Source of the DNA: Lunularia cruciata
Lineage: Eukaryota > Streptophyta > Marchantiopsida > Lunulariales > Lunulariaceae
DNA: 64,000 bases
Assembly: GCA_948567375.1 (NCBI GenBank)
Contig: OX419761.1
Coordinates: 59,929,089-59,993,088, forward strand
Direction of reading: 5' to 3'
Below the pieces are notes generated by a model. It did not search any database. It saw nothing but the letters and a program-made list of their open reading frames with translations, and was not told the DNA's origin. The translations under genes were made by a program, and so were the position numbers. Shown in pieces: positions 4,029 to 51,220 of this stretch; position 1 is the stretch's first letter; each line of letters starts with the position of its first letter.

Positions 4029-4257
4029 AACCTCCCTCCTTTTAAGATGCAACATCCTCGTTGCAAAGCTATTTCTCAAAATATTTCACTAACATTGGTG
4101 TGTGTGTCAAGTTGGCTACTGGCTCCCATGTTGCCTCATACAATGGGTAACCTTTCCATTGTATGAGATATTCCACACGCGGGTGATGAGTACCATGGAT
4201 GCATTTTCAGAAATAAGTTCAACTTTGTATTCCTCCATGCCATCAATGAGTGTTGGG
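4029..4257 (-). pseudogene. chromodomain end of a Ty3/gypsy pol, truncated
   Basis: On the minus strand this matches the 3' end of the pol of the chromovirus at 26700-26950: the LIDG-MEEY start of the chromodomain, the YNGKVT segment, and the polypurine tract next to the LTR. Only the last 230 bases of the internal region remain. At 4257/4258 the sequence passes directly into the terminal TGTCATGC of copy A, so copy A inserted here and the rest of this element is lost or lies elsewhere. Stops are present and no protein can be made. Confidence 0.75.
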
Positions 4258-4493
4258 TGTCATGCGTATATACATTGCTACACAACATACATCGCTGTCA
4301 ACATCATACACTATAGACACATAACTCACACATAAGTCATACATAGAATCTAAAGTGCCACAATCCTCCTCCCCCCTTTGCTGGTGGTTAGGTCCCTCTA
4401 ACTCCAAATAGCCATCTACTCCAAGCATATGGTATACCCTATGATGGGAAAAGATCAAGAGTTCAGGTGCTATCGAGCCCCATCATTAGTCAC

Positions 4494-5030
4494 CTATCTG
4501 CAATCTATACCATATAAAGCCCATGGCCAACCAAGGTAATTGGATATCCCAATCTCCCAAGTGGCCTCTCTACAAACCATACTTTTGAATCCTCTCTTCA
4601 CCGTCTGAACCACTCTCTCTGCTAAGCCATCTACCTTGGGGTGATCTAGGGAGGTAGTACAATTATCAATCAAAGCCTTGTCATACAAGACCTGAAGCTC
4701 TCCCAAGAACTCTGTACCCTTGTCAGTCAAAACCTCAGCTAATGCACCAAAATGACTAAGAACCCAATCCAAGAACAAGTAAGCCGTCCCTTCATTGGAC
4801 TTGTTAGGAAGTGCCACCAACTAAATCCACTTGGAGTGCTCTACCATCACCAAAACGTACCAACGATGTCTCACAATCAATGGTAAAGGTCTAGCAAAGT
4901 CCAAACTCCAATGGTAACCCAATCCCATAATAGGTAATGGGTGTAAATGTGGCATAGGAGCATTGAATGATGCTCTAACTTGGTCACAAACCACACATCT
5001 GGCAACAAATTGTTGTACCTTGGTTTGCAT
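4494..5030 (-). pseudogene. integrase of copy A (broken)
   Basis: Two adjoining minus-strand frames give an integrase: the end of the zinc-binding region with CVVCDQVRASFNAP (4821-5030), then the catalytic core with a TDKGTEFLGEL block carrying the second Asp and a DHPKVDGLAERVVQTVKRG block carrying the Glu region (4494-4820). A TAG stop separates them at the W-to-stop position after HSKWI. Integrase inserts the cDNA into the host genome. Order and spacing match copies B and E. Because of the stops the protein is not expected to be made. Confidence 0.8.
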
Positions 5031-5499
5031 ACCGTGTCACCATTAATGACTTTGGAGCAAGCTATAGGTACACTTTACTCCAAAATGTCCTAGCTCCTTG
5101 TGAGCATGATGGACCAACTATGGTCTCTAAGATAGAAGTGGTACTACTTGCATTTTACCATTCTCCCATACCCAAAGAAGGTGTTTGCCTTCCAATCTGA
5201 ATTGCTTGGCTTGCTGAAGGACACGGTCTCTCTCCTTGGCCCCAACTCTACCACCCAAAACACCAATGTGAAGATAGTCCATCATTAAGACATAATCATG
5301 AATGTTTCACTGAATTGTACTAATGTCTTCACTCTTTGGATTTGTGACCTCAATAACTCCTCCTATATGCGTGAGAGAGAAACCATCAAAGCCTCAAAAA
5401 CTTTACATAGAAATGCAGATGCATGCCAACTTGGCACCATCTCCTCATTTGTCTTTCCATGCCAACATGCTCCAATTTGATCCTACTGGCTAGGGCATG

Positions 5500-6398
5500 G
5501 GTTTCTTATTAACCCATCTGCATCACGGTTCACCACTCCAAGTCTATGAATAATAGTGAAATCAAACTCTTGTAAAATCAGAGCCCATTGGCAAGCTTCC
5601 CTAAAGCTTGTCGGACTCCATCAACACTTGAGTGGCTAATGATCAGTGATGAGAGTAAAGGGGTTACCAAATAGGTAACACCGGAAATGTGCTATTGCCT
5701 ATATTGTTGCCAAGCACTTTCCCTAAAATGAACTATACTTCACCTCCGCTGAATTTTTGGAGCAACTAGCAAAGGCCACCACAAAATCCTTCCCCTCATC
5801 ATCATGTAGGGTGAGCACTGCTCCAAGCCCCAACTTACTTAAATCAATGTGAACCTAAAATAGTCGTCCTCTAATTGGCCTCATCAAAATAAGAGCAGAT
5901 GTCAACCTTTTCTTGAACTCTACAAAAGCTCTCTCTTGCTCATCTCCCCAACACCACTCATGTATAAGCTTGGTCAGCTTTGTCAAAGCCTTGGTAATGG
6001 GAATAAATCCTCTTACATAGCAGCGATAGAAGTTTGCCAACCCAAGGAATGCTCGCACTCTGCTCACATCTGTAGGCCAAGGAATATGCACAATAGCCTC
6101 CACCTTGGGCTATTGAACACCAAGTCCTCCGGTGTAGATAGTGTGACCCAAATAGTCAACTTGCTTGTGGAAGAATCTACATTTCCCAAGATGTAATTTG
6201 AGTCCATGAGATCTCAACCTCTCAAACACCTCCAACAAATGTCTCTCATGCTCCTCCACTATAGTGTTATAGACCAAAATGTCATCAATATAGCACCGAG
6301 CAAAATCTAGTCCAGCTAGGATCTTATCCATGACTCTCTAGAACTTAGTAAGAGCATTCTTTAACCCAAATGGTAAGATCTTCCATTGATATAACACA
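5500..6398 (-). pseudogene. reverse transcriptase (C-terminal half) and RNase H of copy A
   Basis: The minus frame at 6110-6331 carries the RT catalytic block YIDDILVYN and the following HLGKCRFFHKQVDYLGHTI stretch. At 5855-6103 comes the connection to RNase H (RAFLGLANFYRCYVRGF). Further RNase H and tether sequence, with decayed frames, reaches about 5500. The fragment begins in mid-domain at 6398, where copy B interrupts it; the upstream half is at 16446-17040. Stops and at least one frame change make it nonfunctional. Confidence 0.8.
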
Positions 6399-6850
6399 TG
6401 TCACGCCATTTGTAGTGCTGCATCTAGATTGCCCCGGACATTGGAGTTGTAGTGATAGTAGTTAGAGATATTTTAGCAATTTCCCATAGACTATTTTCCG
6501 ACGATCAAATTTTGTATTTGGGGTACTGACTTCACGGTAGAGCCCACCGTCACTTTGCACCATTCACACCGTTGAGTGTGCCATCAGTGGGACCATTAGG
6601 GTTCTAGACCTAGCTTGAGTTTAGGGGTATACTTTTGAATTGCAGCTCCAGAGAGCTCACTTCTTTGATGTTGAGCCTTCAAGTTCTTGGCTATTGTGGA
6701 CAGAGGGTGATGAGCGTCACCTGGATTCTCTCAGCTAGAGTGAGTTTTGTTTGATTGTAATCAATACCCAATTGTTGGCAGTTTATAGAGTGATAGATCA
6801 AGTATTGATCTAAGTTGAGTTGAGTCAAGAGTTGTAAAGAATATGATCAT
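6399..6850 (+). repeat. 5' LTR part of copy B
   Basis: About 450 bp align by eye with 15891-16340 (shared landmarks: TTTGTAGTG, GACTTCACGGT, GAGCCCACC, GAGAGCTCACTTCTTTGATGTTGAGCC, ATAGATCAAGTA). Past about 6850 similarity to the 3' LTR stops: the R1 block that closes the 3' LTR (16341-16445) is not found here. The true 5' LTR end is therefore uncertain; a weak initiator-Met-like primer site (CGGTATCAGC) lies at about 8332. Confidence 0.7.
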
Positions 6851-8379: not shown

Positions 8380-9520
8380 GAGTTGGAGTTTGACACAAGA
8401 GATGATTCAATTGAGAGTGCACTTGGCATGTCCGCACCATTATTGTGGGACATGGATGAGATTTAAAGGGCCTCCAAAAGCCCTAAGCATTACTTTGGTA
8501 CAATGGGTACCATTGATTTGGATGACTTCAACCAAGAGTTTGAAAGTTGGTGTGATCTATAGGAGATGCAGAACCCAACTTTGTTTACACCCTTCATGGC
8601 ATGGAAGGAGTTGTTTCAACATTAGGAGGGTCCACCAATGGATGACTACCTTGAGTTTAAGAGAGCTCATTTGGAGTAGATTGAGTTGTGGAGACAATAT
8701 TGGTCTCCAAACTATATTTTTATTACTTCAAGCTCGGTTGCTAGGAGTAGATTTGTTGTTCCCACGAGTTCTAGCTCGAGTAGTGTTGGTAGAGCTAGTT
8801 AGATATAGTGCTACCATAAGTGGAGGTACCATTGTAGGAGGTGGTGTGGTATCGGGATTTAACCCCATGGTGGATTTCTTCTAGTGTTTGAGGCAAAACT
8901 ACCAAGGAGTATGGATTGAGAAGTTGAGGAGCTTGCAAGAATTCCAGTGGAAGGCTAGAGAGAGCCTACGCAAGGCAAACACTTGCATGAGGCGGTTGAT
9001 CAGTTTCACTTAGGGAGTTATTGAGGTCCAAGCAATCCAGTTTTGGTATGGGATACTTGACAAGAATTTACAATATGGAGTTTGTGATGCTACCTTGTTA
9101 CAAGCTACTTTGCCTACTTTGGCATTGGTCTTTGGTTTGGCTGAGCGTATTGAGCTCAACATGGTGGAGGAGAGGGTAGTCACATCAAGATTTGGTAGGG
9201 AGACCTCATCTATAGTCGTTACTTCTTCTAGTGTGCAGCAAAGTACACCACACCCAATTGGTTTTTGAGGATAGAGTGGACAGCCCGATCCTATGGAGAA
9301 AGTGGAGGGCCTAGTGGAGCTAGACCCTTACCTTCCTTTTCAAGTCAGCAGCAGCCAGTGAGTAGCAGTGTTGCTTGTTAGACTTGTGATAGACCTCACC
9401 ATAAGAGAGAGTGTACTCAAGGCAACAGACTTGATACCTATGTTGCATCGCAACTAGCACAGAGGCAGTGTAAGCATTGCCACAAATTTGGTCATAACTA
9501 GTGACCAATACTTTGACCTA
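8380..9520 (+). pseudogene. gag of copy B with two zinc-knuckle-like motifs
   Basis: The region is followed through several frames. Its end shows two Cys/His clusters: C-x2-C-x4-H-x3-C around 9378-9420 (a TAG interrupts the first spacer) and CKHCHKFGH around 9472-9500. These zinc knuckles bind RNA in gag proteins of LTR retrotransposons. The upstream 900 bases have gag-like composition and position but no motif I can name with certainty. Many TAG and TGA codons break the frame, several of which would be CAG or TGG before a transition. Confidence 0.6.
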
Positions 9521-9550
9521 CACCCAAAGTTATAGAGTGGTAGGGCTGCT

Positions 9551-9802
9551 ATGGCAGGTAGTAGAGGAACTCCAGTTCATGGAGGACAAGGTGGTAGAGG
9601 TGGTGGTAGAGGATCTACACCTAGTAGAGGTGCAATACCTGCCCTTACTTCTGATACAACTATGGCTACTTGGATTGAGCAATTGGAGCAAAGATTGGCT
9701 AGTATGGCCATTGCTCAAAGGAGATCAGATTTGGGTGCTGAGGCTTCCACCTCATATGCTAGTGATAGAGATGCTTTGGACTTCATGTGCAGAGCAGCAT
9801 AG
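9551..9802 (+). pseudogene. Gly/Arg-rich linker after gag of copy B
   Basis: An open frame of 83 codons (ATG at 9551) starts with a Gly-rich, Arg-rich tract (GGQGGRGGGRGSTPSRG) and ends with a short predicted helix (WIEQLEQRLASMAIAQRRSD). RGG-type tracts next to zinc knuckles are common in nucleic-acid-binding gag proteins. It is probably the gag-pol linker and not a separate gene. It ends at a TAG that may have been CAG. Confidence 0.45.
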
Positions 9803-10800: not shown

Positions 10801-11189
10801 TCTGGTGAGGGACGGGTATGTCGCCTACTAGTATGCTTTAGTAGTGGCAGCCTTTGCTCACTATAGTCCAAGACCATGGCAGCATCAATTTCAGCTTTCA
10901 GTGGTGTAGTCACTTGGCTTGGTAAGTTATCAAAGTGGAACGCCCATGCAAAGGATAATCTAGTACCAAAGGAGATCACTTGGATTTGGAGTATGAGTGG
11001 GATTTTTCCATCCACCTTGGATGGAACAATCACACTCGTACTCCAAACCCACAATTGTGGAGTTTAAAGGAGGTAGTGCAGCAGCATGCAGATTGATTGG
11101 TGCAATAGGCTTGGAGTGGAGCCTTTGTACCACCCAAAGATGAGTGTGAGGATGAGCTTCTAGAGTCAATTATCTTGACACCTTTGGAT

Positions 11190-12210
11190 ACCACACTCAT
11201 TGTTTGGCAATATCCAATAGAGGGAGTATGTCTATTGAAGTTGTTTGGTGGGATTAGCACAGTCTAGTTGTGGTTTTACATACGGGTATACGAGTACAAA
11301 AGTACTTGTATGTGGAGAGAGATGAGACTACTAGGCGAGTCTTTCTACATCATGTGGCACAATTGGCCTATCTGTATCCGGAGTTATTACCAATGTCGGT
11401 AGTCAGGGGTTACCAGAAGGCCCTACCATCAGATATTTACTTGTTGGAGGTGCATGATTTGGAAAGACATGGTCCCATTCACTTGGTGATTGCTGGATGG
11501 CCATGTTAGGGACATACTTGTGCTTGTTGAGATTTGGGTCTTCAGGATCCCCATTCTAGTGTGTTTTGGGAGATGTTACGGATACTACAACATCTCTAGG
11601 TCCATCAATCCATTTCTCTAGCTTACCTTTTTAGAGAACATTCCCTTGATGGATGATTCTTGCACCAGAGTGGTAGTGAGTACACATCAAGTCCATTCTT
11701 GGAGAAGATTTGTTGTATTGTTAGATGCATCTAGAGTAGGATCACAGGCTCATCATCTTTGTCTTTGGTGGACAAACCTCTTAACCAGAGAGGTTCTACA
11801 ATGTGCATATGATGGGATTCGGCCACTAGATCACATCCTTGTTGATGATATTTTGGATGTTGGGCGTCAGTCTTAGATATTGGTAGTAGTTGATAGGTCA
11901 CCGGTGGCAGTGGTGCACCTAGTTGGATAGCCTAGAGCCGCATTTCCCACACTCATGAGTTTCCCAAACTCTCATGATTTTTGAGAAGGAGGTCTTGGAC
12001 TTGTTTGGGACTCCTAATTATAGCAATTGGTGGAGCCCAATGTTGATGAGGGAGAGCAGATGATGAGTTTTTGCACCGGTATTACCAATGTTCCAGTAGT
12101 GTCAAAGGCATCCATGAGTCAGGTGTTAGGTCAGGCTATGGACCTGAACTATTTGACCTAGATTGTGAGCCTTGGCTTGGTAGAATAGCGTAAGATGTGC
12201 TTGATAGGCA
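11190..12210 (+). pseudogene. C5-cytosine DNA methyltransferase domain in the pol of copy B (decayed)
   Basis: Motifs of C5-cytosine methyltransferases occur in the right order. Motif I, the SAM-binding site, is seen as LLKLFGGIS at about 11232, with one base lost just after it. Then comes YLYVERDETTRR (11300). Motif IV follows as HLVIAGWPC, ending at 11507, its next codon TAG where a Gln is expected. Motif VI is FLENIPLM at about 11630 after a frame change. A motif-VIII-like segment is LLDASRVGSQAHHLCLWW (11720-11770). Motifs IX/X match GQAMDLNYLT (about 12130-12160). No target-recognition domain typical of bacterial enzymes is evident; the layout is closest to eukaryotic de novo type enzymes, which is inference. 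The domain lies between protease and RT and appears fused into the polyprotein. It would transfer methyl groups from SAM to cytosine. Confidence 0.85.
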
Positions 12211-12499
12211 TCACCACTCTGACATTTGTGAGCCCTACGCCTATGGAGACAATTTAGGCACATGTTGGGGATGATGGACCAAGTGGACATGGTATTCTTG
12301 GGACATGGCCATTAGCTACTAGGGAGAGTGGTCTACTTAGAGTCCATCCAAGTGAGCGTGGGCTACTCGGATTACACCCTTGGTCCACTTGGGATGTAGC
12401 TAGAGGACGTGTGGAGCTCGCAGTCAGAGTGGAGGGAATTTTTCACACAGAGGTTGGAACCTCTAGTGGTCGGAGGCATGACACTATTGCTCCCAAGGG

Positions 12500-13350
12500 C
12501 CCAATGTAGCAGCCAATGAATACGTCTTCCACTCTTGCAACAATTATAAAGGATACTTGGGAGCCAGATCTTGGACCCAAGCTTACAGGAGAAGAAAGAC
12601 AAAGAGTTTGGAGGTTCTTGAGGAGCTACACGAGTTGTTTTGCCTGTAGTATGCAGGATTTGGGTGCTCTGAAGGGACCTGGCATACAAATTGAGTTGAC
12701 TAGCAATAGACCAATTTTCTAACATCCTTATTAATATAGTAATATGGAGAGGACATTGATTTAGAGCTAGAGTAGTGACCTTTTTGAGGGTGGTTTGGTA
12801 GAGATTTCACATAGATAGTATGCATCAGCGACAATGATGCCAACCAAGAAGGATATGCATGACAACTACACAGATAGGCGGATGTGTGAAGATTATCATC
12901 CTATCAACCAATAGACTAGGGCTTATCGTTATGCCATGCCTAGACTAGAGGAGATTTTTTATGCAATTGGGCATGAAAAGGTCTTCAATACTTTGGATCT
13001 TCAAGCAAGATATCATCAATTGCCTATCAAGGAGGAGGATAAGTGCAAGACAACATTTTGGGTTGTTGATCCTCACGGCAAGGATGTGTTATATCAGTGG
13101 AGGTTCTTACCATTTGGGTTAAAGAACACTCTTGTTGAGTTCTAGAGGATCATGGGTGAGATCCTAGCTAGATTGAATTTTCTTGGTGTTATATTGATGA
13201 CATTTTGGTCTATAGCACTATTATGGAGGAGCATGAGAGACAGTTGTTGGAGATGTTTGAGAGGTTGAGATCTCATGGACTCAAATTACATCTTGGGAAG
13301 TGTAGGTTCTTCCATGAGCAAGTTAAGTATTTGGGTCACACTATCTACTC
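12500..13350 (+). pseudogene. reverse transcriptase of copy B
   Basis: The connector with TWEPDLGPKLTGEERQRVWRFL (12555-12620) leads to RT: MPTKKD and MCEDYHPIN (primer-grip side), FNTLDLQARYHQLPI with the first catalytic Asp (12980-13025), WRFLPFGLKNT (13100-13130) and the YIDDILVYS catalytic box (about 13190-13217). At least one frameshift and several TAG codons separate these blocks. RT copies the genomic RNA into cDNA. The same blocks, less one half each, are found in copies A and E. Confidence 0.85.
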
Positions 13351-14023
13351 CGGAGGACTTGGTGTTCAACCAACCAAGGTGGAGGCTATTGCACATATTT
13401 CTTGGCCTACGGATGTGAGCAAAGTGCAAGCATTCCTTGGGTTGGCAAACTTCTATCGCCATTATGCTAGAGGATTTAGTGTCATTGCCAAGGCTTTGAC
13501 GAAGCTGACCAAGCTTACATAGAAGTGGTGTTGGGGAGATGAGTAAGAGAGAGCTCTTGTAGAGCTCAAGGAGAAGTTGACATCTACTCCTATTTTGAGG
13601 AGACCAATTAGAGGATGACCATTTCAGGTTCATACTGATTGGAGTATGTTGGGGCTTGGAGTGGTGCTCATCCAACATGATGATGAGGAGAAGGAGTTTG
13701 TGGTGGCCTATGCTAGTCGCTCTAACAATTCAGCGGAGGTGAAGTATAGTTCATATGAGGGAGAATGCTTGGCAGCAGCTTGGGCAGTAGCACATTTCCA
13801 CTCTTACCTATTTAGTAGCCCCTTCACTCTCATCACTGATCATCAGCCGTTGAAGTGGTTGATGGAGTCCAACAAGCTTTCAAGAAAGCTTGCACGATGG
13901 GTTTTGATTTTACATGAGTATGATTTCATGGTTGTTCACAGACCTAGAGTGGTGAACCGTGATGCAGATGGGTTGAGTAGAAACCTATGTCCCAACCAGC
14001 AGGATCAGACCAAAGCACGTTAG
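13351..14023 (+). pseudogene. connection and RNase H domain of copy B
   Basis: RAFLGLANFY-like tether (13425-13460) is followed by RNase H: LGVVLIQHDDE, FVVAYASRSNN, YEGECLAAAWAVAHF and LITDHQPLKWLM in the long open frame 13646-14023, closing with VVNRDADGLSRN. The Asp and Glu residues of the RNase H active site can be followed. RNase H degrades the RNA strand during cDNA synthesis. This is the longest intact stretch of copy B, about 125 codons. Confidence 0.85.
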
Positions 14024-14359
14024 CATGGTGAGATAGATGAGGAGATGGTGCCAAGTTGGCATGCATCGGTCTTTCTCTGTATATTTTTTGAGGCTTTGGT
14101 GGTATCTCTCTCAGCACATACAGGAGAAGTTATTGAGGTCATAGATCCAAAGAGTGAAGATATTGGTACAAATCAGCAAGATATTCATGATGATGTCTTA
14201 GTGATGGACTATCTTTGCACTGGTATTGTGGGTGGCATATTTGGGACCAAGGAGAGAGACCGTGTCCTTCAGTGAACCAGGCGGTTCAGATTGGAGGGTA
14301 GACACCTTCTTTGGGTATGGAAGGATGGTAGAGTTGAGTAGTACCACTTCCACCTTAGA

Positions 14360-15140
14360 GACCTGAGTTGGTCCATCATGCTCATGAGGAGCTAGGACAT
14401 CTTGGAGTAAAGCATACATATAGCTTACTCCACAGCCATTATTGTTGGCACGGTATGCAAACTAAGGTACATCAATTTGTTACCAGATGTGTGGTTTGTG
14501 ACCAAGTTAGAGCATCATTCAATGCTCCTACACCACAGTTACACCCATTACCTATCATGGGATTAGGTTACTGTTAGATTTTGGACTTTGCTTGACCTTT
14601 ACCAGTGATTGTGAGACATCATTGATATGTTTTGGTGATGGTGGAGCACTTCTCAAAGTGGATTGAGTTGGTGGTACTTCCTGACAAGTCTAGTGAAGGG
14701 ACATCTTACTCTTCTTGGATCGAGTTCTTAGTCATTTTGGCACACCAACTGAGGTTTTGATTGATCAAGGTACAAAGTTCTTGGGGGAGTTTTAGGTCTT
14801 GTGTGACAAAGCTTTGATTGATCATCATACTACATCCCGAGATCACCCTAAGGCAAATGGCTTAGCAAAAAGAGTGGTTCAGACGGTGAAGAGAGGATTG
14901 CAAAAGTATGGTTTGCAGAGATGCCACTTGGGAGATTGAGATCTCCAGTTACCTTGGTTGGCCATGGGCTATCGGTTCAACCGGCAAGCCTCCTTAGCAT
15001 CCTTCTCTCCTTACTTTCTACTCTATGGACAAGATCCAAATTTACCTACAGCCATTTGTCAAGATACTACTATAGTCTTGGACTTGGATGATCCAAATGT
15101 ATGGGTGAGTGCATGTTTTCAATGGGCAGAGATCTTTTAG
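14360..15140 (+). pseudogene. integrase of copy B
   Basis: The zinc-binding HHCC module is intact in the open frame from 14368 (H-A-H-E-E-L-G-H ... C-V-V-C, up to 14510). The catalytic core is followed across stops: a TGG-to-TAG change at about 14575, LVMVEHFSKWIELV (14630-14670, partly frameshifted), a DQGT-like block (14760) and a WEIEISSYLGWP block (14930-14960). The end retains FSPYFLLYGQDPNLP at 15003-15047. Nonfunctional. Confidence 0.8.
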
Positions 15141-15788
15141 AGAGTGATGCCGATGGCCTTTGAGAAGTTGGCAATTGCTCAACATAGGGATACCTTATGT
15201 TATGCTACTATTTGAGGAGGAGGTTATAGACCCTCAATCCGTTGATTTTATCCAAGTGACTATGTATATCTACAACATGTAATACAGACGACACTTGATG
15301 TTTTGATAGGCCACACTATCTTGAGAGTGCACAAGGTTTTGCCATCTAGAGTCCTTGTGTTAAAAGGACGTGATAGTGTTGTTTGGAAGGATCATGTGTG
15401 CAAATATGCGCCATGCTACCTCCCAAACATTGATGGTACTGTGGAATCAAGCTTGGCACTTGTATGAGTAGGCTTGAGGTCTATGTTATGTGGCTCTTCT
15501 AGTAGAGCTGCTACTATGTTAGTGTGAGATAGTTGTTTGAAAGGATGACATATGGCATATATGACTCCTCCCCTCATGGTGGTTCCTCAAGGACAGTAGT
15601 TATGTCCTAGATGTACTTGACTTATAGCTAGTTCATTCTTTATATGGTATAGATTGCAGACAAGCAACTAACATGGGGCTCCATAGTACCAGGCCTTCTG
15701 ATCTTTGCCCATCATAGGGTATACCATATACTTGGAATAGATGGCTATTTGGAGTTAAAGGGACCTAACCGCTAGCTAGGGGAGCGAT

Positions 15789-15890
15789 TGTGGCACTTTA
15801 GAGTCTATGTACTACTTATGTGTGAGTTGTGTTTCTATAGTGTAGCAATGTATATGCGCAAAAGGTAGTGATGTCTATACGCATGATAGT
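15789..15890 (+). repeat. R1 repeat before the 3' LTR of copy B
   Basis: About 100 bp starting TGTGGCACTTTAGAGTC, preceded by a purine-rich tract (AGGGGAGCGAT). A second copy closes the following LTR at 16341-16445. The same R1-U-R1 arrangement exists in copy E, and only R1 is left in copy A, so the duplication is a family trait. See the findings for possible meaning. Confidence 0.7.
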
Positions 15891-16445
15891 TGTCATGCCA
15901 TTTGTAGTGTTGCATCTAGATTGCTCGGACATTGGAGTTGTAGTGATAGTAGTTAGAGGTATTTCAACAGTTTCTCATAGACTACTTTCCAACGGTCAGA
16001 TTTCATGTTCAGAGTACTGACTTCACGGTGGAGCCCACCATCACTTTGCACCATTTATACCATTGAGTGTGCCGTCAATGGGACCGTTAGGTTCTAGACC
16101 TAGCTTGAGTCCAGGGGTATACTTTTGAAGTGCAGCCCTAGAGAGCTCACTTCTTTGATGTTGAGCCTTTGAGTTCCTTGCTATGGTGGAGAGAGGCTAG
16201 CAAGTGTCGCCTAGATTTTCTTAGCTAGAGTGGATGGGGCTTGACTATAATCAGTGCCTAGTTGTTAGCACTTTATAGAATGATAGATCAAGTACTGATC
16301 TGAGTTGAGTTGAGTTGAGAGTTATAAACAATTTGATTATTGTGTCACTTTAGAATCTATGTATGACTTATGTGTGAGTTGTGCTTCTATAGTGTATGAT
16401 GTTGATAGTGATGTATGTTGTGTAGGGATGTAAATGCGCACAACA
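15891..16445 (+). repeat. 3' LTR of copy B
   Basis: It starts TGTCATGCCATTTGTAG and ends with a degraded form of the GCATGACA terminus seen intact in copy A, so the family ends were inverted TGTCATGC/GCATGACA. Length is 555 bp. It is followed directly by the CACA(T) duplication and then the reverse transcriptase of copy A. Confidence 0.75.
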
Positions 16446-17040
16446 CACATCCTTGCCATGACAATCAATAGCCCAAAATGCTATCTTGGACTTATCATCT
16501 TCCTTGATCGGCAACTAATGATATCCTACTCAAAGATCCAAAGTACCAAAGACCTTTGCATGCCCAATTGCATCAAAGATCTCCTCTAGTGTAAGCGTAG
16601 CATACCAATCAGCCCTAGTCTATCAATTGATAGGACGGTAATCTCCACACGTCTACCTATTTGTGTAATTGCTATGCCTATCCTTCTAGGTTGGCATCAT
16701 TGTGGTTGATGCATACTCTTTATATGAAATCTCCACCAAACCAACCTCAAAAAGGTCACTACTCTGGCTCTAAATCAATGCTCGCTCCATGTCACTATAT
16801 TGATAGAGATGTTAAAAAACTTGTGTATTGCTAGTAAGCTCAATCCAAATACTAGATCCTTTTAGAGCACTCAAATCCTTCATATTGAAGGCAAAACAAC
16901 TTGTGTAGCACCTCAAGAACCTCCAAGCTCTCCATCTTTCATCTCCTGTAAGCTTGGGTCCAAGATCTGACTAGTTTCCTCTATAACTACCATAGATCTA
17001 TAGTATCCTCTATAACTACCATAGGAGTGGAAGACGTAAT
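16446..17040 (-). pseudogene. reverse transcriptase, N-terminal half, of copy A
   Basis: The minus-strand translation in broken frames matches copy B at 12720-13090 (YASATMMPTKKD-like segment, Y-R-tract, IFDAIGHAKVFGTLDL-like block, KIAFWAIDCHGKDV). It ends at the GGCAAGGATGTG bases that continue, in the intact element, at 6398. Stops are frequent. It provides the right-hand proof of the copy B insertion. Confidence 0.75.
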
Positions 17041-17049
17041 GATTGGTTG

Positions 17050-17322
17050 CTACACTAGACCCTTGGGAGCAATAGTGTCATGCTCCCAACCACTAGAGGT
17101 CCCAACCTCAATGTAGAAAGCTCCCTCCACTCTAGCTACAAGCTCCATACATCCTCTAGCTACATCCCAAGTAGACCAAGGGTGTAATCCAAGTAGACCA
17201 TGCTCACCTAGATGGACTCCAAGTAGGCCACTCTTCCTAGTAGCCACTGGTTGTGTCCCAAGAATACCTTGTCCACTCGGTCCATCACCCCCAGCATATG
17301 CCCAAATTGTCTCAATAGGCAC
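17050..17322 (-). pseudogene. connector between methyltransferase and RT of copy A
   Basis: A 90-codon open frame with GPSGQGILGTQP, SGLLGVHLGEHGLLGLH and WSTWDVARG. Copies B (12230-12500) and E (37190-37420) carry the same segment, so it is a conserved part of the polyprotein of this family. I recognise no domain. It contains a twofold internal repeat (GLLGVH-GLLGLH). Confidence 0.6.
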
Positions 17323-17339: not shown

Positions 17340-17515
17340 AGTGGTGATGCCTATCAAGTGCATCATATGCTGCTTTGCCAAGCTAAGCCTCACAATCCAT
17401 GTCAAACAATTCAAATCCATAACATGACCTAACAGTTGATGCTTGGATGCCTCTAACACTGTTGGAATAGCGGCAATACTCGTGTGAAACCCAATAGCCC
17501 GCTCTCTCTCATTGG
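17340..17515 (-). pseudogene. C5-methyltransferase motifs IX-X of copy A
   Basis: Read from 17515 downward the frame gives NERERAIGFHTS (motif IX-like region) and LLGHVMDLNCLTWIV (motif X-like, where family members show GQAMDL). It aligns with copy B at 12050-12180. The N-terminal part of the same domain is displaced to 20118-21129 by the insert. Confidence 0.75.
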
Positions 17516-20117
17516 CGTTGTTGTGGGGATTGATTGGTCTTGGGAGTGCATCGGGCACCTGGCTTCTTGTGCTCAAATTTCTCGACTTGTCACCGGTTTG
17601 AAGCCTTTTGGAATCAGACCTTGCCTCTACTTTTCCTTGGACGGCAGTCCTTCTTGCTGGAACAGCTTGCAACTGATGCAACTGAATGTAAGCTCCTCTG
17701 TAATCGTTTCTTGAGTTGGGTTTTGTTGAAGCAAGCTTCATCTTCATGCTTCATTGCTAATGTTAAAGTTTTGTTCAGATTATATGTGTGTTTAATGGCT
17801 ATGATGTATTTTCTCTAACGAGTCGCAGTCCCATGGCCATGTTCAGATAATTGTAACCAGGTCCAGGACCTAACAATGCAGCCAGACTGAGAGAGCTCTG
17901 AGAATGGAGTCCTCTCATTGATACTATTCATGGAATATTCACAGTCATCAAGGAAGTATATATTCATCATAATTCCAAGCCTTGCAATTATAACTTTCAG
18001 GGAAAACCCAAGCAGCTTCAAACAATACAGTGCCACCTAAAGTTTTCAACTGCCAAGCATGTAAATGAAGGGAAATGAGCAAGTTCTAGATCCTAACTCT
18101 TACAATTCTTAGACCCCCGTTCTATCGTGACTCCAACTGAGATCTCCATATCTTTTCTCTGATTGACAGGTTCTCTTTTGTGATTGCTTCCTTCTGTCTA
18201 AACTCAAATCTTTTGCACAGCCACGACTCTCTTCCGGAAGTCTCCCTCACTTTTCTTCAGCACTTCTCACTCATTACTGAATTTGTTCCAAGACTCTCCT
18301 TCAAAAGTCTTTCCTCTCACATTTTCTTGAATTCTCTCCTAAACCCTTCACGTTCTCACTTGAAAGCATCACTACCATTGCCATTCTTCCAAAAGCTTCA
18401 CATTCATTCTCTGAAGCATAACACATTCTCCCAAAAATATCACATTCTTGTCATTTTCTTGGAAGCATAATTGATCTTCACTTTCTCTCCCAAAAAATAT
18501 CACTTCTCTGGCATTATTTTGCTCTCCAACTCTGTTCTTCTCCCAAAAGTTTATCACATTCTCTCAAAAAGCATAACTTCTCTCAAAAGCATTACTGCCA
18601 TTACCATTCTTCTGAAAGCTTCACATTCACTCTCTAAAGCATAACACATTCTCCCAAAAAGCTTCCCGTTCTTGTTCTCTCCTAACAGCTTCACATTCTC
18701 TCTTGAAATTATCACATTCTTGTCATTCTCTCAAAGCATAACAGGTCTTCACTTTCTATTCCAAAAAATATCACTTCTCTGCCCTTCTTCTACTCTCCAA
18801 CTCTATTCTTCTCCCAAAATCTTGTCAATCCCTAAACCCCTACTTGTTCTTCACAACCTTCAGATCTCTAGAAAAGTGTAACGTCTCTTGAAAGCATCAC
18901 TGCCACTGCCATTCTTCCAAAAGCTTCACATTCACTCTCTAAAGCATAACATATTCTCCTGAAAGCTTCTAGTTCTCATTCTCTTCTAACATCTTCACAT
19001 TCTCTCCCAAAATTATCACATTCATGTCATTCTCTCAAGCATAATAGGTCTGCACTTTCTATTCCAAAAAACATCACTTCTCTGTCCTTCTTCTGCTCTC
19101 CAACTCTATTCTTTTCCCAAAATCTTGTCAATCTCTAAACCCCTACTCGTTCTTCACAACCTTCAGATCTCTAGAAAAGCATAACTTCTCTCAAAAGCAT
19201 CACTCCCACTGCCATTCTTCTAAAAGCTTCACATTCACTCTCTAAAGCATAACACATTCTCCTAAAAATTTCTTTGCCATTCTCCCAAAGACAATCACTT
19301 CTTGGTCTTCTCCCAAAATCCTCACACTCTTTTCCAACACCACTCACTTCTTGTTCTTCTCCCAAAACCCTCACATTCAATTCCAATGCCACTCACTTCC
19401 TGTTCTTCTCCCAAAACCCTCACATTCTTCTCCAAATGCATTATTGGTCTTCACATTCTTTCCTCTAAACAATAACACAATCTCTTGAAAACTTCTCTAT
19501 CATTCTCCAAAAAAACTTCTCTGTCATTCTCCCAAAAACAAATCACTTCTTGGTCTTCTCCCAAAATCCTTATACTCTTTTCCAATGCTACTCACTTCCT
19601 GTTCTTCTCCCGAAACACTCACATTCTTCTCCAAACACATTACTAGTCTTCACCTTCTTTCCTTTGAATGATAACTCAATCTCCTAAAAACTTCTCTATC
19701 ATTCTTCCTTGAAGCAACCCACTTCTTGTTCTTCTCAAAAACCCCTTAAGCCCCCCTCATCACTTGAAGCTTTCTCCTTTTTTCTTGCTCTTCCACTAAA
19801 ATGGAAAAATACTCCTAAGACCCCAATAACATAAAACAAAAGTCCTGAGCTTGTGTGACATAAATATAAGCCTCAAATCTGTGTAACTCAAAAGAACTCC
19901 TAATTTCATGCAAACTAATAGATACTCCTAAGTTTATGCATCATTTCTAAACCTTCAAGCTTATGAAGTATAAAAGAACTTCCGACTTCACAACAGCATG
20001 AAAGTTATTCCAAAGACACAATACCTAAAAAAAACCCAAAGTCATTGCAACATAAGAAAACAAATCCTTCACACCAAATGGCATCAATAGTATAAGTGTG
20101 CTATTTTCTCAATGACA
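17516..20117. mobile_element. unidentified insert splitting the copy A methyltransferase
   Basis: Copy B shows that the sequences at 17515 and 20118 should be contiguous, so about 2.6 kb is inserted here. CTCAT at the left edge and CTCAAT at the right edge may be the target duplication. The left 400 bases are richer in GC and unlike the surroundings; the rest is CT-rich on the plus strand with tandem repeats. I see no transposase, RT or clear terminal repeats, so it may be a non-autonomous element. Confidence 0.55.
18290..19750. repeat. tandem repeats of about 300 bp, passing into shorter units
   Basis: Units begin near 18362, 18590, 18891 and 19190 with GAAAGCATCACTGCCATTGCCATTCTTCC-like text and contain AAAAGCTTCACATTCACTCTC, TATCACTTCTCTG and CTCTCCAACTCTATTCTTCTCCC. 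The full unit is close to 300 bp (18590 to 18891 to 19190). From about 19290 the array continues as 60-100 bp units around CACTTCTTGTTCTTCTCCCAAAA. It is strongly strand-asymmetric (C/T versus A/G). Confidence 0.8.
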
Positions 20118-21129
20118 ATGTTGGGCTCCACCAACTATTGTAATTGTGAGTCCCAAACTAGTCCAAGACCTCCCTCTCAAAAAGCATGAGAGCCAAGCAA
20201 ACTCATGAGTATGGGAAAATTGGCTCTAGGCTATCCAAGTAGGTTCAACATTGCCATAGGTGACCTATCAACCACTACCACCATTTGAGACTCATGCCTA
20301 ACATCCAAGATATCATCAACAATGATGTGGTCTAGTCATTGAATCCCATCATAAGCGCATTGTAGAACCTCTCAAGGTAAGAGGTTCATCCTCCAAAGAC
20401 AAAGATGATGAGCCCATGATCCTACTCTGGTTGCATCTAACAATACGGTAGGTCTCATCCAAGAATAGACCTCATGTGTACTCACCACTACTCTGGTGCA
20501 AGAATCACCCATCAAAGGAACATTCTCCAAAAGTTAAGTTGGAGAAATAGATTGATGGACCTAAAGATGTCAAAGTATGCGTAACATCTCCCAAAACACA
20601 TCAAAACAGGCATCTTGAAGAGCAAACCCCGGCTAGCATATGTATGTTCTTGATATGGCCATCTAGTAATCACCAAATGAATAGGCCCATGTTGCTCTAG
20701 ATCGTGCGCCCCCAACAAAGAAACTCTATTGGTAGGGCCTTCTGGTAACCCTTAACTATTGACATCGGTAATAACTCAAGATATTGATAAGCCAAGTGTG
20801 CCACATGATAGAGAGAGACTCACCTAGCAATCTCATCTCTCTCCACATACAAGTACCTCTATACTTGTATACCTACCTATAATATTGCAGCTAGTCCAAT
20901 GATAATCCCACCGAGCAACTCCAATAGACATACTCCCTCTACTAGATACTGCCAAGCAATGAGTGTGATATCTAAAGGTGTCAAGGTAATCAACATTGGA
21001 GGCTCATACTCACACAAGTCTCCTGGTGGTACAAAGGCTCCACTCAAGCCTGCTACACCAACTGATCTACATGCTACTACAATGCCTTCTTTGAACTCCA
21101 CAAAGGAATATCCAAGGTGGATGGAACAA
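20118..21129 (-). pseudogene. C5-methyltransferase domain (motifs I-VIII) of copy A
   Basis: Minus strand from 21129 downward. Motif I is seen as GVCLLELLGGIIIGLAAIL (around 20880-20935). Motif IV is HLVITRWPYQEH (about 20655-20690), where the catalytic Cys of the PCQ triplet is replaced by Tyr. Motif VI is ENVPLMGDSCTRV (about 20495-20530). The motif-VIII-like segment is LLDATRVGSWAHHLCLW (about 20400-20450). These align with copy B at 11200-12000. The lost Cys alone would abolish methyl transfer. Frameshifts are also needed to read it through. The 5' end is cut by chromovirus C. Confidence 0.85.
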
Positions 21130-21867
21130 TGTAATACCAAGAGCTAGCCATATGATCTAGATGTGAAATTTGGTTTGGTAACATCTAGAATGATGTATAC
21201 ATGATGGTCAAAAAAGATAAGATAGAAGTATCACCAAAAGAGTACTTCTACTAATAGGGCAGAAACCAAAATAGACTTGAGAACCTTAGAACCAATAGCT
21301 AGACATATGATTTAAAGGTGAGAATTGGGTTGGTAACATCTAGAAGGATGTTACACATGATGTAATAAACAGATCAAAAAGAGGTATCACCAAAAGGAGA
21401 CTTCTACTAATAGAGTAGGAACCAAAATATGCCTGAAATCTTTGAAGGTAATTTCGGAGGCCTAAATGGATGAATTAGGCCTCAAAAATGTGCAAACCCC
21501 CCCCCCAAATGGGGCAATGGCTGACCTCCCCACCCCCTGCTTTGTCTTGTTGAGAGCTCTCCAATGGTACCTTACTCACGTGATTCTAAGATTCCTACAA
21601 GAAGATTCCCTAAAAGATTCCCTCCGGTCAAAGCTTGTTTGACCAACCAGATAGGACCTAGACCAGACATGTCACCCATTCAAGTAAGTAATCCAAGGGT
21701 GGAGCTTGCTAACATGTCACCTATCTGTGTTCCTAATCCTATGGTGGAGCTTCCTTGGAGGAGATCCTCTTTGTCTATATAATAAAGAGAATGTGCTCCT
21801 TTGGGGCATCGAATGTTTGAGTGTGCAATTTGTGTTTTTTTTCTTCTCTTGTCCTCGGAGTATTACA
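21130..21867 (+). repeat. 5' LTR of element C
   Basis: It starts TGTAATACCAAGAGC and ends GGAGTATTACA with TGTAAT/ATTACA terminal inversion. Inside, two related units of about 150 bp lie in tandem (21140-21285 and 21290-21450), each with CATATGAT, GGTTTGGTAACATCT, TATCACCAAAAG and CTTCTACTAATAG. A poly-C tract lies near 21496. TATATAATAAAG near 21775 is the likely TATA box of the element. Confidence 0.92.
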
Positions 21868-36640: not shown

Positions 36641-37739
36641 TCCCCAAATTATTTAGGAATTCTTGGCATCTGATCAATAGACCAGGTAAATACATCCTAG
36701 TATTCTATAAACAAGGTATTGTAATTTTCCAACTCTTTGGAAGTGGTTGTCTTGAATATCTTAAGTACTTTCCTTTGTCTATGATAACATCTTGACAATC
36801 ATCAGGTTGGATGACTCCTTCTACATGGTTTACTCAACTTAGTCTAAGTCAAGTGGAGTTATAATCTCCTTCTTCTAAATCATTGCTACTCTAGGCTACA
36901 TCATATAGGTTTTCATCTTTGATATCCACCTCATAGCATTCCAAATAGTTTACCTAGATTTCTTGATTCAAGTCTTCCAAAGACAAGGAAGATGAATCAT
37001 CAGATTGATCTTTGTATTCAAACAAAGTAGTTTCCCCAAGGTGGGAAATCTTCATCCAACTTATTGTCACCAACCAATAACCTTCAGACTTAATAATCCT
37101 TAACCCTCATCTTTTGTTGATGCCAATCCATAACAACACTTGATAGGCATCAATACTCAAACACTTGTGAGCTTTGTGCCCATCGAGACAATTCAAGCAC
37201 ATGCTGGGGGTGATGGACCAAGTGGATAGGGTATTCTTGGGATACAACAAGTGACTACTAGGGAGAGTGGTCTACTTGGAGTCTATCCAGGTGAGTATGG
37301 TCTACTTGGATTACAACGTTGGTCTACTTGGGATGCAGCTAGAGGACATATGGAGCTTGCAGCTAGATCAGATGGAGTTTTTCACATTGAGGTTGGGGGC
37401 ATGACACTACTGCTCCAAAGGGCCCAATGTAGTAGCCAATCAATACATCTTCCCCTCCTACAATAGTTACAAAGGATACTTAGGAGCCGGATCTTGGACC
37501 CAAGCTTACAAGAGAAGAAAGACGAAGAGTTTGGAGGTTCTTGAGGAGCTACACAAGTTGTTTTGTCTTTAGTATGAAGGATTTGGATGCTATGAAGGAC
37601 TTGGTATTTGGATTGAGCTGACTAGCAATAGACCTGTTTTTTGACCTCCTTATCAATATAGTGACAAAGAGAGAGCCCTAATTCAGAGCCAAAGTAGAGA
37701 CCTTTTTTAAGGCAAGTTTGGTGAAGATTTCACATAAAG

Positions 37740-38250
37740 AGTATGCATCAGCTACAATGTTGCCAACCAAGAAGGATATGCATGGCAAATACACAAATAA
37801 GCAGATGTGTGAAGATTACCGTCTTATCAACTGACAGACTAGGGCTGATCGGTATACCATGCCTACACCAAAGGAGATCTTTGATGCAATTGGGCATGCA
37901 AAGGTCTTTAATACTTTGGATCTTTGAGCAGGATATCATTAGTTGCCAATCAAGGAGGAGGATAAGTCAAAGACAACATTTTGGGCTATTGATCCTCACA
38001 ACAAGGATGTGTTATATTAGTGGAAATTCTTACCATTTGGGTTAAAGAATGCTCTTCCCAAGTTCTAGAGGGTCATGGACAAGATCCTAGCTAGATTGGC
38101 TTTTACTTGGTACTATATTGATGACATTTTAGTCTATAGCATTCATGTGGAGGAGCATGAGAGACATTTTTTGGAGGTGTTTGAGAGGTTAAAATCTCAT
38201 GGACTCAAATTACATCTTGTGAAGTGTAGGTTCTTCCATGAGCAGGTTTA
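37740..38250 (+). pseudogene. reverse transcriptase of copy E
   Basis: In broken frames: MLPTKKDMHGKY, MCEDYRLIN, FNTLDL, FWAIDPHNKDV and the YYIDDILVYS catalytic box at about 38112-38140. TAG and TGA codons replace CAG, TGG and CGA codons of copy B in several places. Confidence 0.8.
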
Positions 38251-39049
38251 GTATTTGGGTCACATTATCTACCTTGGAGGACTTGAAGTTCAGCAGACCA
38301 AGGTGGAGGCTATTGTGCATATTCTCCAACCTACAAATGTGAGCAGAGTGCAAGCATTTCTTAGGTTGGCAAACTTCTATTGCCAATATGTTAGAGGATT
38401 TAGTGCCATTGCCAAGGCCTTGACAAAGTTGACCAAGCTTACACAAGAGTGGTGTTGGAGAGATGAGAAGGAGAGAGTATTTGTAGAGCTCAAGGAGAGG
38501 TTGACATCTGCTCCTATTTTGAGGAGACCGATAAGAGGATGACCAGTTAAGGTTCACACTAATTGGAGTATGTTGGGGCTTGAAGCAACACTCACCCAAC
38601 ATGACGATGAGGGGAAGGATTTTGTGGTGGCCTATGTTAGTCACTCCAACAATTCAATGGAGGCAAAGTATAATTTATATGAGGGAGAGTGCTTGGCAAC
38701 AGTATGGACGATAGAACATTTCCAATGTTACCTATTTGTTAACCTCTTTACTCTCATCATTGATCATCAATTACTAAAGTGGTTGATGGATTCAAACAAG
38801 CTTTTAGGGAAGCTTGCACAATGGGCTCTGATTTTACAAGAGTATGATTTCACGGTTATTCACAAACCTAGAGTGGTGAATTGTGATGCAGATGGGTTGA
38901 GTAGAAACCTATGTCCTAGCCATCAAGATCAGACCAGAGCACATTGGCATGGTGAGACAAATGAGGAGATGGTGCTAGGTTGGCACACATCTACCTTTCT
39001 TTGTAGATTTTTTGAGGCTTTGGTGGTATCTCTCTCAATGCATACATGA
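38251..39049 (+). pseudogene. connection and RNase H of copy E
   Basis: Open frame 38255-38542 (ANFYCQYVRGFSAIAKAL, WCWRDEKERVFVELKERL) and, after a TGA, 38570-39049 with YEGECLATVWTIEHF, LIIDHQLLKWLM and VVNCDADGLSRNL. The usual TDH motif reads IDH. Both frames are nearly continuous. Confidence 0.8.
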
Positions 39050-39289
39050 AGAGTTATTGAGGTCATAGATCCAAAGAGTAGAGAGAGTGGTACAATTCAG
39101 CAAGACATTCATGATGATGTCTTAGTGATGGACTATCTTTGCACTAGTGTTGTGGGTGGCACAGTTGGGGCCAAGGAGAGAGACCATGTCCTTCAGCAAG
39201 CCAGATAGTTCAGATTGGAGAGTAGACACTTTCTTTGTGTATGAGAGGATGGTAGAGTGAGATTAGTACCACTTCCATCTCAAAGACCA

Positions 39290-40020
39290 CAGTTGGTCTA
39301 TCATGCTCATGAGGAGCTAGGACATTTTGGAGTAGAGCGTACATATAGCTTACTCTAGAGTCATTATTGGTGGCATGATATGCAAACCAATGTATAGTAG
39401 TTTATTGCAAGATGTGTGGTTTGTGACCAATTTAGAGCATCATTTAATGCTCCTATGCCACAATTACACCCATTACCCATCATGGGGTTAGGTTACTATT
39501 GGAGTCTGGGCTTTGCTGGACCTTTACCATTGACTGTGAGGCATCATTGGTACATTTTGGTGATGGTGGAGCACTTCTTTAAGTGGATTGAGTTGGTGGC
39601 ACTTCTTGAGAAGTCCAGTGAAGGGACGGCTTACTTGTTCTTGGATCGGGTTCTCAATCATTTTGGTGTACCAACTAAGGTTTTGATTGATCAAGGCATA
39701 CAATTCTTGGAAGAATTTCACATCTTGTATGACAAGGCTTTGATTGATCATCATACTACCTCCTAAGATCACCCTATGGCAGATGGTTTAGCAAAGAGAG
39801 TGGTTCAGATAGTGAAGAGAGGATTGTGAAAGTATGGTTTGCAAAGAGGCCACTTAGGAGATTAGGATCTCTAGTTACCTTGGTTGGCCTTGGGCTATCG
39901 ATTCAGCCGGCAAGCCTCCTTAGCATCCTTCTCTCCTTACTTTCTACTCTATGGATGAGATCCAGATTTACCTATAGCCATTTGTCAAGATGCTACTATA
40001 GTGTTGGACTTGGATGATCC
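39290..40020 (+). pseudogene. integrase of copy E
   Basis: Zinc module with HAHEELGHFG and CVVCDQFRASFNAP; catalytic core LGFAGPLPLTVRHHWYILVMV and VLIDQGIQFLEEF in the open frame 39416-39766. After a TAA the C-terminal part is readable in shifted frames to about 40020. The core has a Gly where integrases usually have the first catalytic Asp (SLGFAGPL versus SLDFAGPL). Confidence 0.8.
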
Positions 40021-40705
40021 AAATGTATAGATGACCACATGTTCTCAACGGGTAGAGATCTTTTGGAAAGTGATGCCAATGGCCTTTGAGAACTTGGCGG
40101 TTGCTCAACATAAGGATACCTTATGCTATGCTACCATTCAAGGAGGAAGTTATAGACCCTTGATCCGTTGATTTCATCCAGGTGACTATGTATATCTACA
40201 ACATACAGCACCAACAACACACTTGATGTTTCTATCTTGAGAGTATGCAAGGTTTTTCCATCTGGAGTCCTTGTGTTGGAAGGACGTGATGGTGTTGTTT
40301 GGAAGGATCATGTGTGCAATTGTGCACCATGCCACCTCCCAAATATTGATAGTACTATGGACCCAAGCTTGGCACTTGTATGTGTAGGCTTGTGGTGTTT
40401 GTTTTGCGGCTCTTATGGTGGAGCTGCTACTATATTAGTGTGTAATAGTTGTTAGAGAGGATGCCATATGGCATGTATGACTCCTCCCCTCATGATGGTT
40501 CCTCAAGGACAATAGTTATGTCCTAGATGTACCTAACATATAGCTAGTTCATCTTTTATATAGTATAGATTGTAGATATGCAACTAGTGATGGGGCTTGA
40601 TAGCTCCCAGCCTCCTGATCTTTTGCCCACCATAGGGTATACCATATACTTGGAGTAGATGGCTATTTGGAGTTAGAGGGACCTAACCGCCAACTAGAGA
40701 GTGAT

Positions 40706-50545: not shown

Positions 50546-51220
<675 letters not shown>

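What the first reader, a model, noticed from the sequence alone, without database searches (positions are those of the whole stretch)
11190..12210. Ty3/gypsy retrotransposon carrying a C5-cytosine DNA methyltransferase between protease and RT
Seen in sequence: C5-methyltransferase motifs I (LFGGI), IV (GWPC), VI (LENIP), VIII-like and IX/X (GQAMDL) in correct order, directly followed by a conserved connector and the RT of the same element. Established: plant Ty3/gypsy elements normally have gag-PR-RT-RH-INT with at most a chromodomain as extra; retrotransposons with their own DNMT have been reported from a charophyte alga and from dinoflagellates (independent acquisitions). Inference: an element could methylate its own cDNA or new copies, perhaps to hide from or exploit host methylation. 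Finding this in a genome with land-plant-like genes would widen the known range.
Basis: partly seen in the sequence, partly recalled or inferred. Interest (0 to 1): 0.95.

Follow-up and report, generated by a model that had tools for sequence, protein, structure and literature searches.

The report
Plant retrotransposon carrying DNA methyltransferase
A jumping gene family in a plant genome carries its own DNA-methylating enzyme and a histone-reading finger, and relatives occur in liverworts, peat mosses and a green alga, so it offers a way to study how a genomic parasite uses its host's silencing marks.

Summary
Window 11055-12254 is a decayed C5-cytosine methyltransferase between protease and RT of a Ty3-type element (copy 1, 6399-16445). 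A second decayed copy lies on the minus strand. Of the host genome's copies, 20 of 20 fetched loci carry the domain between protease and RT. By profile it is Dnmt3-type, motifs unpermuted. Relatives occur in liverworts, Sphagnum, the alga Closterium and metagenomes.

(1) Integrase ends in a PHD finger. (2) An in-frame TAG CAR YYA, a tobamovirus-type leaky stop (20 of 20 loci; 2 of 3 window copies), separates Gag-PR-DNMT from RT-RH-IN-PHD, so the methyltransferase probably accumulates with Gag. (3) Repeats are split (A1...B1-A2-B2), yet 7 of 9 copies with both ends have 4-bp target duplications. (4) Relatives exist in two domain orders, DNMT-RT and RT-DNMT-IN; their methyltransferases form one clade apart from host DNMT3.

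Closest known: the Klebsormidium Gypsy-Dnmt3 element (2018). My ten literature searches showed no land-plant members, PHD finger or leaky stop. Best mechanism (inferred): the element methylates its own cDNA or fresh insertion while the PHD steers integration. Enzyme activity is untested.

The parts
6395..6398 (.). left target-site duplication CACA of copy 1
   Evidence: matches 16446-16449; the empty site is the RT of copy 2. 4 bp if the element is read as TG...CA; up to 6 bp possible
6399..6850 (+). A1, left repeat of copy 1
   Evidence: 6400-6850 is 84% identical to 15892-16340 over 451 columns
8452..9250 (+). gag region
   Evidence: tblastn with Marchantia P0044, 61% and 63% identity in two stretches
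9373..9709 (+). zinc-knuckle (CCHC) region
   Evidence: tblastn with Marchantia P0024
10265..10986 (+). aspartic protease region and what follows it, disrupted by a 15-nt tandem repeat at 10450-10494
11055..12254 (+). Dnmt3-type C5-cytosine methyltransferase domain and its N-terminal lead, decayed
   Evidence: E 9.8e-106 with P0001; P0002 match starts at 11055; P0026 match ends at 12254; 84-86% DNA identity to 20 of 20 genome copies
12507..12515 (+). leaky-stop motif TAG CAG CCA between DNMT and RT
   Evidence: TAG CAR YYA in the same place in 20 of 20 genome loci
12648..14089 (+). start of the RT connector, reverse transcriptase and RNase H
   Evidence: (RVT_1, RT_RNaseH)
14368..15404 (+). 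integrase (H2C2 zinc finger, core, C-terminal part)
   Evidence: (PF17921 E 1e-12); the right edge is set by eye
15468..15617 (+). PHD finger at the integrase C-terminus, decayed here
   Evidence: one 274-residue tblastn stretch 14796-15617, 67.5% identity, from integrase through PHD; PF00628 E 0.0065, below cut-off, on the broken piece
15787..15886 (+). B1, inner repeat
15892..16340 (+). A2, inner repeat
16339..16445 (+). B2, right end of copy 1
16446..16449 (.). right target-site duplication CACA
20116..21145 (-). copy 2: DNMT domain, first part (cut by an insertion at 17513-20115)
17340..17512 (-). copy 2: DNMT C-terminal part (motif X)
17044..17052 (-). copy 2: leaky-stop motif TAG CAA CCA
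16445..16883 (-). copy 2: start of RT, interrupted by copy 1
4254..6399 (-). copy 2: rest of RT, RNase H, integrase and 3' part after the nested copy 1
37139..41354 (+). copy 3: 5'-truncated; starts at the equivalent of 12200, so at most the last codons of the DNMT; connector (stop region reads TAG TAG CCA), RT, RNase H, integrase, PHD, then B1 (40704-40808), A2 (40815-41252), B2 (41251-41354)

Best explanation
A Ty3-type retrotransposon lineage that encodes Gag, protease, a Dnmt3-type cytosine methyltransferase, RT-RNase H, integrase and a C-terminal PHD finger. Shown by sequence: the domain order, the in-frame UAG with CAR YYA context after the methyltransferase, the split direct repeats A1...B1-A2-B2, and 4-bp target duplications. 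Inferred: most ribosomes stop at the UAG and make Gag-PR-DNMT, so the methyltransferase enters the particle at Gag amounts; a minority read through and make the RT-RH-IN-PHD extension. The methyltransferase then methylates the element's own double-stranded cDNA before or at insertion. The PHD finger on integrase holds the integration complex to histone H3 tails, probably those without H3K4 methylation, so that pre-methylated copies land in silent chromatin, where they do little harm and are tolerated. The internal B1-A2 junction, which is both ends of the element joined with 2 bp between, is the template from which both ends are rebuilt.
For: DNMT between PR and RT in 20 of 20 fetched genome copies, integrase and PHD in 19 of 20, and the same parts in named relatives. 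Leaky-stop motif in 20 of 20 loci and 2 of 3 window copies; CAR YYA after UAG is described as essential for tobamovirus readthrough in plants (PMC2754532, passages). Seven named proteins of Marchantia, Calypogeia and Sphagnum end 73-77 residues after the DNMT. Dnmt3 identity: profile best hits DNMT3A/3B at E 1.3e-17, then a plant DNA methyltransferase (4onj) 1.4e-10 and DRM2 3e-8; the 50 Foldseek rows shown are all DNMT3 entries. Motif IV GWPCQG in 16 and motif VI LENV in 17 of 17 scored copies. Changes shared by two or more copies give pN/pS 0.38 in the DNMT (29 N, 25 S). PHD nearest in the PDB to CHD4, PHF12, DPF, ATXR5, KDM5B and PHF21A fingers. The Symbiodinium retrotransposon Dnmt3 methylates CG in yeast (PMC5890265 section 10).
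Against: I saw no measurement of enzyme activity, readthrough, histone binding or cDNA methylation for this lineage. The Klebsormidium domain, closest in kind, gave no methylation in yeast, called inconclusive by its authors. Purifying selection on the DNMT looks weaker than on RT (0.38 against 0.13) or gag (0.10). Window copy 3 has lost the motif (TAG TAG CCA). Several annotated proteins run on from DNMT into RT (P0026 Riccia; P0037, P0130, P0133, P0134, P0136 Marchantia; P0143 Sphagnum fallax; P0164 Closterium); these are gene models that may splice round a stop, or lack it. Old copies are CG-poor and 49 of 55 stops in genome copies fit C-to-T change, but host enzymes explain that as well as the element's own. 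The histone mark read by the PHD is judged from its neighbours and from recall.
Confidence: 0.5

Rival explanations
1. The methyltransferase acts in trans on host chromatin or competes with host silencing, for example by methylating CG in a way that blocks or dilutes the host's own marks, rather than on the element's own cDNA.
For: The genome has its own DNMT3, DRM and CMT/MET1-like genes, so the parasite faces an active methylation system; copies are many (123 scored PF00145 matches, host genes among them, out of 2161 first-look candidates), so dosage could be high.
Against: Placement at the C-terminus of a Gag-PR frame suggests packaging into particles. [quoted passage not shown]
Confidence: 0.2
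2. The domain is kept for binding nucleic acid, for RNA methylation or for a structural role in the particle, and is no longer a DNA methyltransferase.
For: No activity seen for the Klebsormidium domain in yeast; pN/pS of 0.38 is relaxed against RT; the part after residue 216 is poorly modelled (pLDDT under 50 in 217-314).
Against: GWPCQG and LENV are kept in 16 and 17 of 17 scored copies (3 of the 20 loci were not scored). In the family alignment WPC stands in all 15 rows of 17 that cover it, and the motif VI Glu-Asn is listed as nearly invariant.
Confidence: 0.2
3. The element is an ordinary Ty3 element and the methyltransferase-like match is chance or an artefact of a few rearranged copies.
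For: The window copy alone gives only a weak Pfam match (E 0.012).
Against: 20 of 20 genome loci, with open frames of up to 1428 codons spanning Gag-PR-DNMT; relatives in named liverworts, Sphagnum species and Closterium.
Confidence: 0.01
4. The UAG is a fixed terminator and RT is made from a separate start or a separate (for example spliced) RNA, so DNMT and RT are independent products.
For: Some relatives have no stop and a single long frame (P0145, P0156, P0163), and some annotated Marchantia, Riccia and Sphagnum gene models run from DNMT into RT, so other ways of expression may exist.
Against: Same reading frame on both sides in L013 and L014, and the six following bases are CAR YYA in 20 of 20 loci, which free drift would not be expected to keep; but the copies are closely related, so this is partly shared descent.
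Confidence: 0.1

Closest known systems
KnitGypsy-Dnmt3 of Klebsormidium nitens (de Mendoza et al. 2018, PMC5890265; abstract, sections 9, 10, 11 and passages read)
   Same: Gypsy-type element with an unpermuted Dnmt3 in its coding region, intronless, and repeats described as arranged like those of DIRS elements
   Different: Reported from one charophyte. The main text has no hit for PHD or readthrough. No Klebsormidium protein was among the hits of my three protein searches, so direct homology is not tested; its supplement was not available.
SymbioDIRS-Dnmt3 and SymbioLINE-Dnmt (same paper)
   Same: Retrotransposons with a methyltransferase; two domain orders coexist in SymbioDIRS; the Dnmt3 domain methylates CG in yeast
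   Different: DIRS (tyrosine recombinase) or LINE backbone, not an integrase-bearing Ty3 element
Chromoviruses and Tcn1-like Ty3 elements of non-seed plants (PMC2864245, PMC3350952: search listing with start of abstract; PMC6317226: passages)
   Same: Ty3 core with a histone-reading module at the integrase C-terminus; 4 or 5 bp duplications
   Different: They carry a chromodomain, not a PHD finger, and no methyltransferase is named; the 2019 survey text has no hit for methyltransferase or PHD
Ginger1 DNA transposons (PMC2836005, passages)
   Same: Gypsy-like integrase with a C-terminal PHD finger in at least one family
   Different: DNA transposons with terminal inverted repeats and no RT
Host DNMT3 and animal DNMT3A/3B
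   Same: Same enzyme fold and motif order; DNMT3A also pairs a methyltransferase with a PHD-like finger (recalled)
   Different: Host genes are intron-split and lie with DNMT3A on the other side of the branch (SH-aLRT 99.9) that holds all 35 retroelement rows

Membership tests
Ty3/gypsy LTR retrotransposons | RT, RNase H, then integrase with H2C2 zinc finger, in that order | tested here: met
   (in the RT-DNMT-IN relatives the DNMT lies between RNase H and integrase)
Ty3/gypsy LTR retrotransposons | identical direct long terminal repeats at both ends | tested here: not met
   left end A1 alone in 8 of 10 loci (the other 2 show no A1 in the fetched piece), right end B1-A2-B2 in 10 of 10
Ty3/gypsy LTR retrotransposons | short target-site duplication made by a DDE integrase | tested here: met
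   4-bp duplications in 7 of 9 copies with both ends (6 of 8 loci plus window copy 1); L013 and L021 have none
Chromovirus branch of Ty3 | chromodomain at the integrase C-terminus | tested here: not met
   a PHD finger is there instead; no chromodomain in the Pfam tables of the proteins scanned
DIRS (tyrosine-recombinase) elements | tyrosine recombinase instead of integrase | tested here: not met
   integrase domains found, no tyrosine recombinase in the Pfam tables of the proteins scanned
DIRS (tyrosine-recombinase) elements | split direct repeats A1...B1-A2-B2 | tested here: met
Dnmt3 methyltransferases | C5-methylase motifs I, IV, VI, X in unpermuted order, nearest to DNMT3 | tested here: met
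Dnmt3 methyltransferases | de novo methylation of DNA | not testable with these tools
   no assay possible
DRM methyltransferases | permuted motif order | tested here: not met
   I-IV-VI-X order; the host DRM (L002) shows the permuted order for contrast
KnitGypsy-Dnmt3 | sequence descent from the Klebsormidium element | not tested
   no Klebsormidium sequence was available or named among the hits

The most novel reading that the evidence does not exclude
One ancient Ty3 lineage, older than the split of liverworts and mosses and shared with zygnematophyte algae, has kept a DNA-methylation writer and an H3-tail reader together ever since. Each new copy would thus be methylated by its own enzyme and placed in H3K4-unmethylated chromatin: a parasite that writes its own silencing mark. 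The enzyme moved once inside the polyprotein (PR-DNMT-RT against RH-DNMT-IN), and a DDE integrase works with split, DIRS-like repeats.
Probability: 0.35. Interest if true: 0.95.

Novelty: new variant of a known kind. Interest (0 to 1): 0.88.

Why it matters
DNA methylation is a main brake on plant transposons, so an abundant transposon that carries its own de novo type methyltransferase plus a histone reader asks directly whether silencing can serve the parasite. The integrase-bearing case that I found in print is one alga. Finding the family in liverworts, including the laboratory plant Marchantia polymorpha, in Sphagnum and in many young copies of the window's genome makes the question testable in a genetic model. 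The leaky stop gives a concrete, quick test of how the enzyme is dosed, and split repeats with an integrase challenge the usual line between LTR and DIRS replication.

Full report
Observation. The four motifs lie at 11241, 11495, 11631 and 12129 on the + strand, in the right order, over two frames and with stops. Pfam alone is weak on the broken pieces (1 of 3 pieces, E 0.012). A protein search with the read-through found 28 proteins, the best at 60% identity over 96% of the query, among them proteins of Calypogeia fissa, Sphagnum troendelagicum, Marchantia polymorpha, M. paleacea and Riccia sorocarpa. Of nine hits scanned, eight have PF00145 over the cut-off (P0026 has none). Six of them were laid on the window and match colinearly: zinc knuckle, protease, methyltransferase, RT, each covering the part it has.

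Window anatomy. Copy 1 runs from 6399 to 16445 on +, nested in the RT of copy 2, which lies on the minus strand from 21145 down to 4254 and carries a further insertion at 17513-20115. The nesting fixes both ends of copy 1 and shows a duplicated CACA. A third copy, 37139-41354, has lost its 5' part and the methyltransferase. The copies are old: the A repeats of copy 1 differ at 16% of sites, and DNMT or RT stretches of the copies are 83-91% identical to the 20 fetched copies.

The genome. The window is C11:59929089-59993088 of a 566-Mb assembly of 74 contigs; eight contigs of 60-85 Mb make up about 558 Mb. The PF00145 search had 2161 first-look candidates, of which 123 were scored and listed. 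I fetched 20 of the 123, chosen mostly for long open frames, so they are biased to young copies. In 20 of 20 a protease match lies upstream and RT downstream of the methyltransferase (in L028 only a 45-residue scrap of protease); integrase and PHD are present in 19 of 20 (not in L024's stretch); gag matches are absent at the usual place in L017 and L027 and a scrap in L028. L009 and L010 have 1428 open codons over Gag-PR-DNMT; L013 and L014 have 1037 open codons over RT-RH-IN-PHD, in the frame of the DNMT and separated from it by one stop.

Leaky stop. In 20 of 20 loci the stop is TAG followed by CAG CCA (18), CAG CTA (1) or CAG TCA (1); window copy 1 has TAG CAG CCA and copy 2 TAG CAA CCA. 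Window copy 3 keeps the TAG but reads TAG TAG CCA. UAG CAR YYA is the context reported as essential for tobacco mosaic virus readthrough (PMC2754532, passages). Proteins of Marchantia (P0128, P0129, P0132, P0135), Calypogeia (P0029) and Sphagnum (P0075, P0113) end 73-77 residues after the domain, so the stop position looks conserved.

PHD finger. Marchantia P0064 ends in integrase then PHD (PF00628, E 4.4e-9). One tblastn stretch of 274 residues, 67.5% identical, runs from integrase through PHD in window copy 1 (14796-15617); copy 3 has it too. The Cys4-His-Cys3 pattern is intact in 19 of 20 loci. The nearest solved fingers include CHD4, PHF12, DPF2/3, ATXR5, KDM5B and PHF21A; from recall several of these read H3 tails without K4 methylation.

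Repeats and integration. In 10 of 10 loci with fetched ends the right end is B1-A2-B2; A1 without B marks the left end in 8 of 10 (L010 and L016 show no A1 in the piece). A1 and A2 are 97.3-99.8% identical in 7 of these 8 and 88% in L013. The ends read TGTCACGCC...CGCACGACA in most, with 4-bp duplications in 6 of 8 loci and in window copy 1; L013 and L021 show none. The internal B1-A2 junction reads CGCACGACA-GC-TGTCACGCC, that is both ends joined, in 5 of 8 loci and differs by a few bases in L012, L013 and L025. The repeat plan is the kind described for the Klebsormidium element (PMC5890265 Fig. 4 legend).

Decay. Of 55 stops in the domain alignments of genome copies, 27 are CAG to TAG, 17 CGA to TGA and 5 TGG to TAG. 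CpG o/e is 0.32-0.50 in the 20 fetched stretches, 0.17-0.24 in the window copies and 0.69 in the genic part. This fits heavy CG and CHG methylation of the copies, by whichever enzyme.

Relatives and history. The second search gave 125 hits, 120 listed, with named hosts only in Marchantia, Calypogeia and Sphagnum. The third, with the natural 1428-codon frame of L009 and its DNMT part, gave 46, adding Sphagnum fallax and the zygnematophyte Closterium sp. NIES-53, and metagenome polyproteins, five of which have DNMT, RT, integrase and PHD by precomputed Pfam. Of 29 proteins with two or more of the domains, 11 read RT-DNMT-IN-PHD, 6 RT-DNMT, 4 DNMT-IN-PHD, 6 DNMT-RT and 2 DNMT-RT-IN; Pfam order agrees in the three long ones I scanned. 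On the tree with two host DNMT3 genes and DNMT3A outside, 35 retroelement rows lie on one side of a branch (SH-aLRT 99.9). Inside, 15 of 16 RT-DNMT rows group (95), and the DNMT-RT rows with Closterium and several partial proteins group at 91. On RT the RT-DNMT rows group at 99.7. So one capture followed by one move inside the polyprotein is the simplest reading; these are quick trees with some long branches, and without host rows the DNMT tree was less clear (53.8).

Literature. In ten searches the 2018 paper is the only report that I saw of an integrase-bearing element with a methyltransferase; a 2025 paper cites it and writes of Copia and DIRS elements (PMC12344493, passages). I saw no paper that names land-plant members, the PHD finger or the leaky stop in such elements; I read passages of nine papers, and most subscription journals and bioRxiv are outside the library.

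Verdict. Identity is near certain; the mechanism is an inference.

Noticed in passing
window 23649-26267 (+): A different Ty3-type element with RT and integrase in two long frames split by a stop; 35% identical in RT to the Marchantia relative P0037.
   Followed up: partly
window 17513-20115: An insertion in copy 2 made largely of pyrimidine-rich tandem arrays (303-nt and 199-nt units at 18560-19705).
   Followed up: no
window 21136-21429 and 26963-27263: Two arrays of nearly the same 156-nt unit, one next to copy 2.
   Followed up: no
window 50750-51220 (+): Open frame that reads like histone H3 (named from recall).
   Followed up: no
window 52230-52301 (-): tRNA-Pro (TGG), the only tRNA and the only Rfam match above threshold in the window.
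   Followed up: no
window 60528-63073 (-): Several exon-like frames rich in Gly-Gly repeats, perhaps one long glycine-rich host protein.
   Followed up: no
L001, L004 (host genome): Two intron-split DNMT3-like genes; L002 reads as a DRM with permuted order and L003 as a CMT/MET1-like piece (named by eye). DNMT3 is reported not detected in angiosperms (PMC6453930, passages).
   Followed up: partly
P0144-P0163 (metagenome proteins): Relatives with the methyltransferase between RNase H and integrase, in one long frame; hosts unknown.
   Followed up: partly
after A1 in L009, L012, L014, L018, L025: CATCAGAG follows A1, sharing ATCAGAG with the recalled initiator-tRNA complement; a possible primer site.
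   Followed up: no
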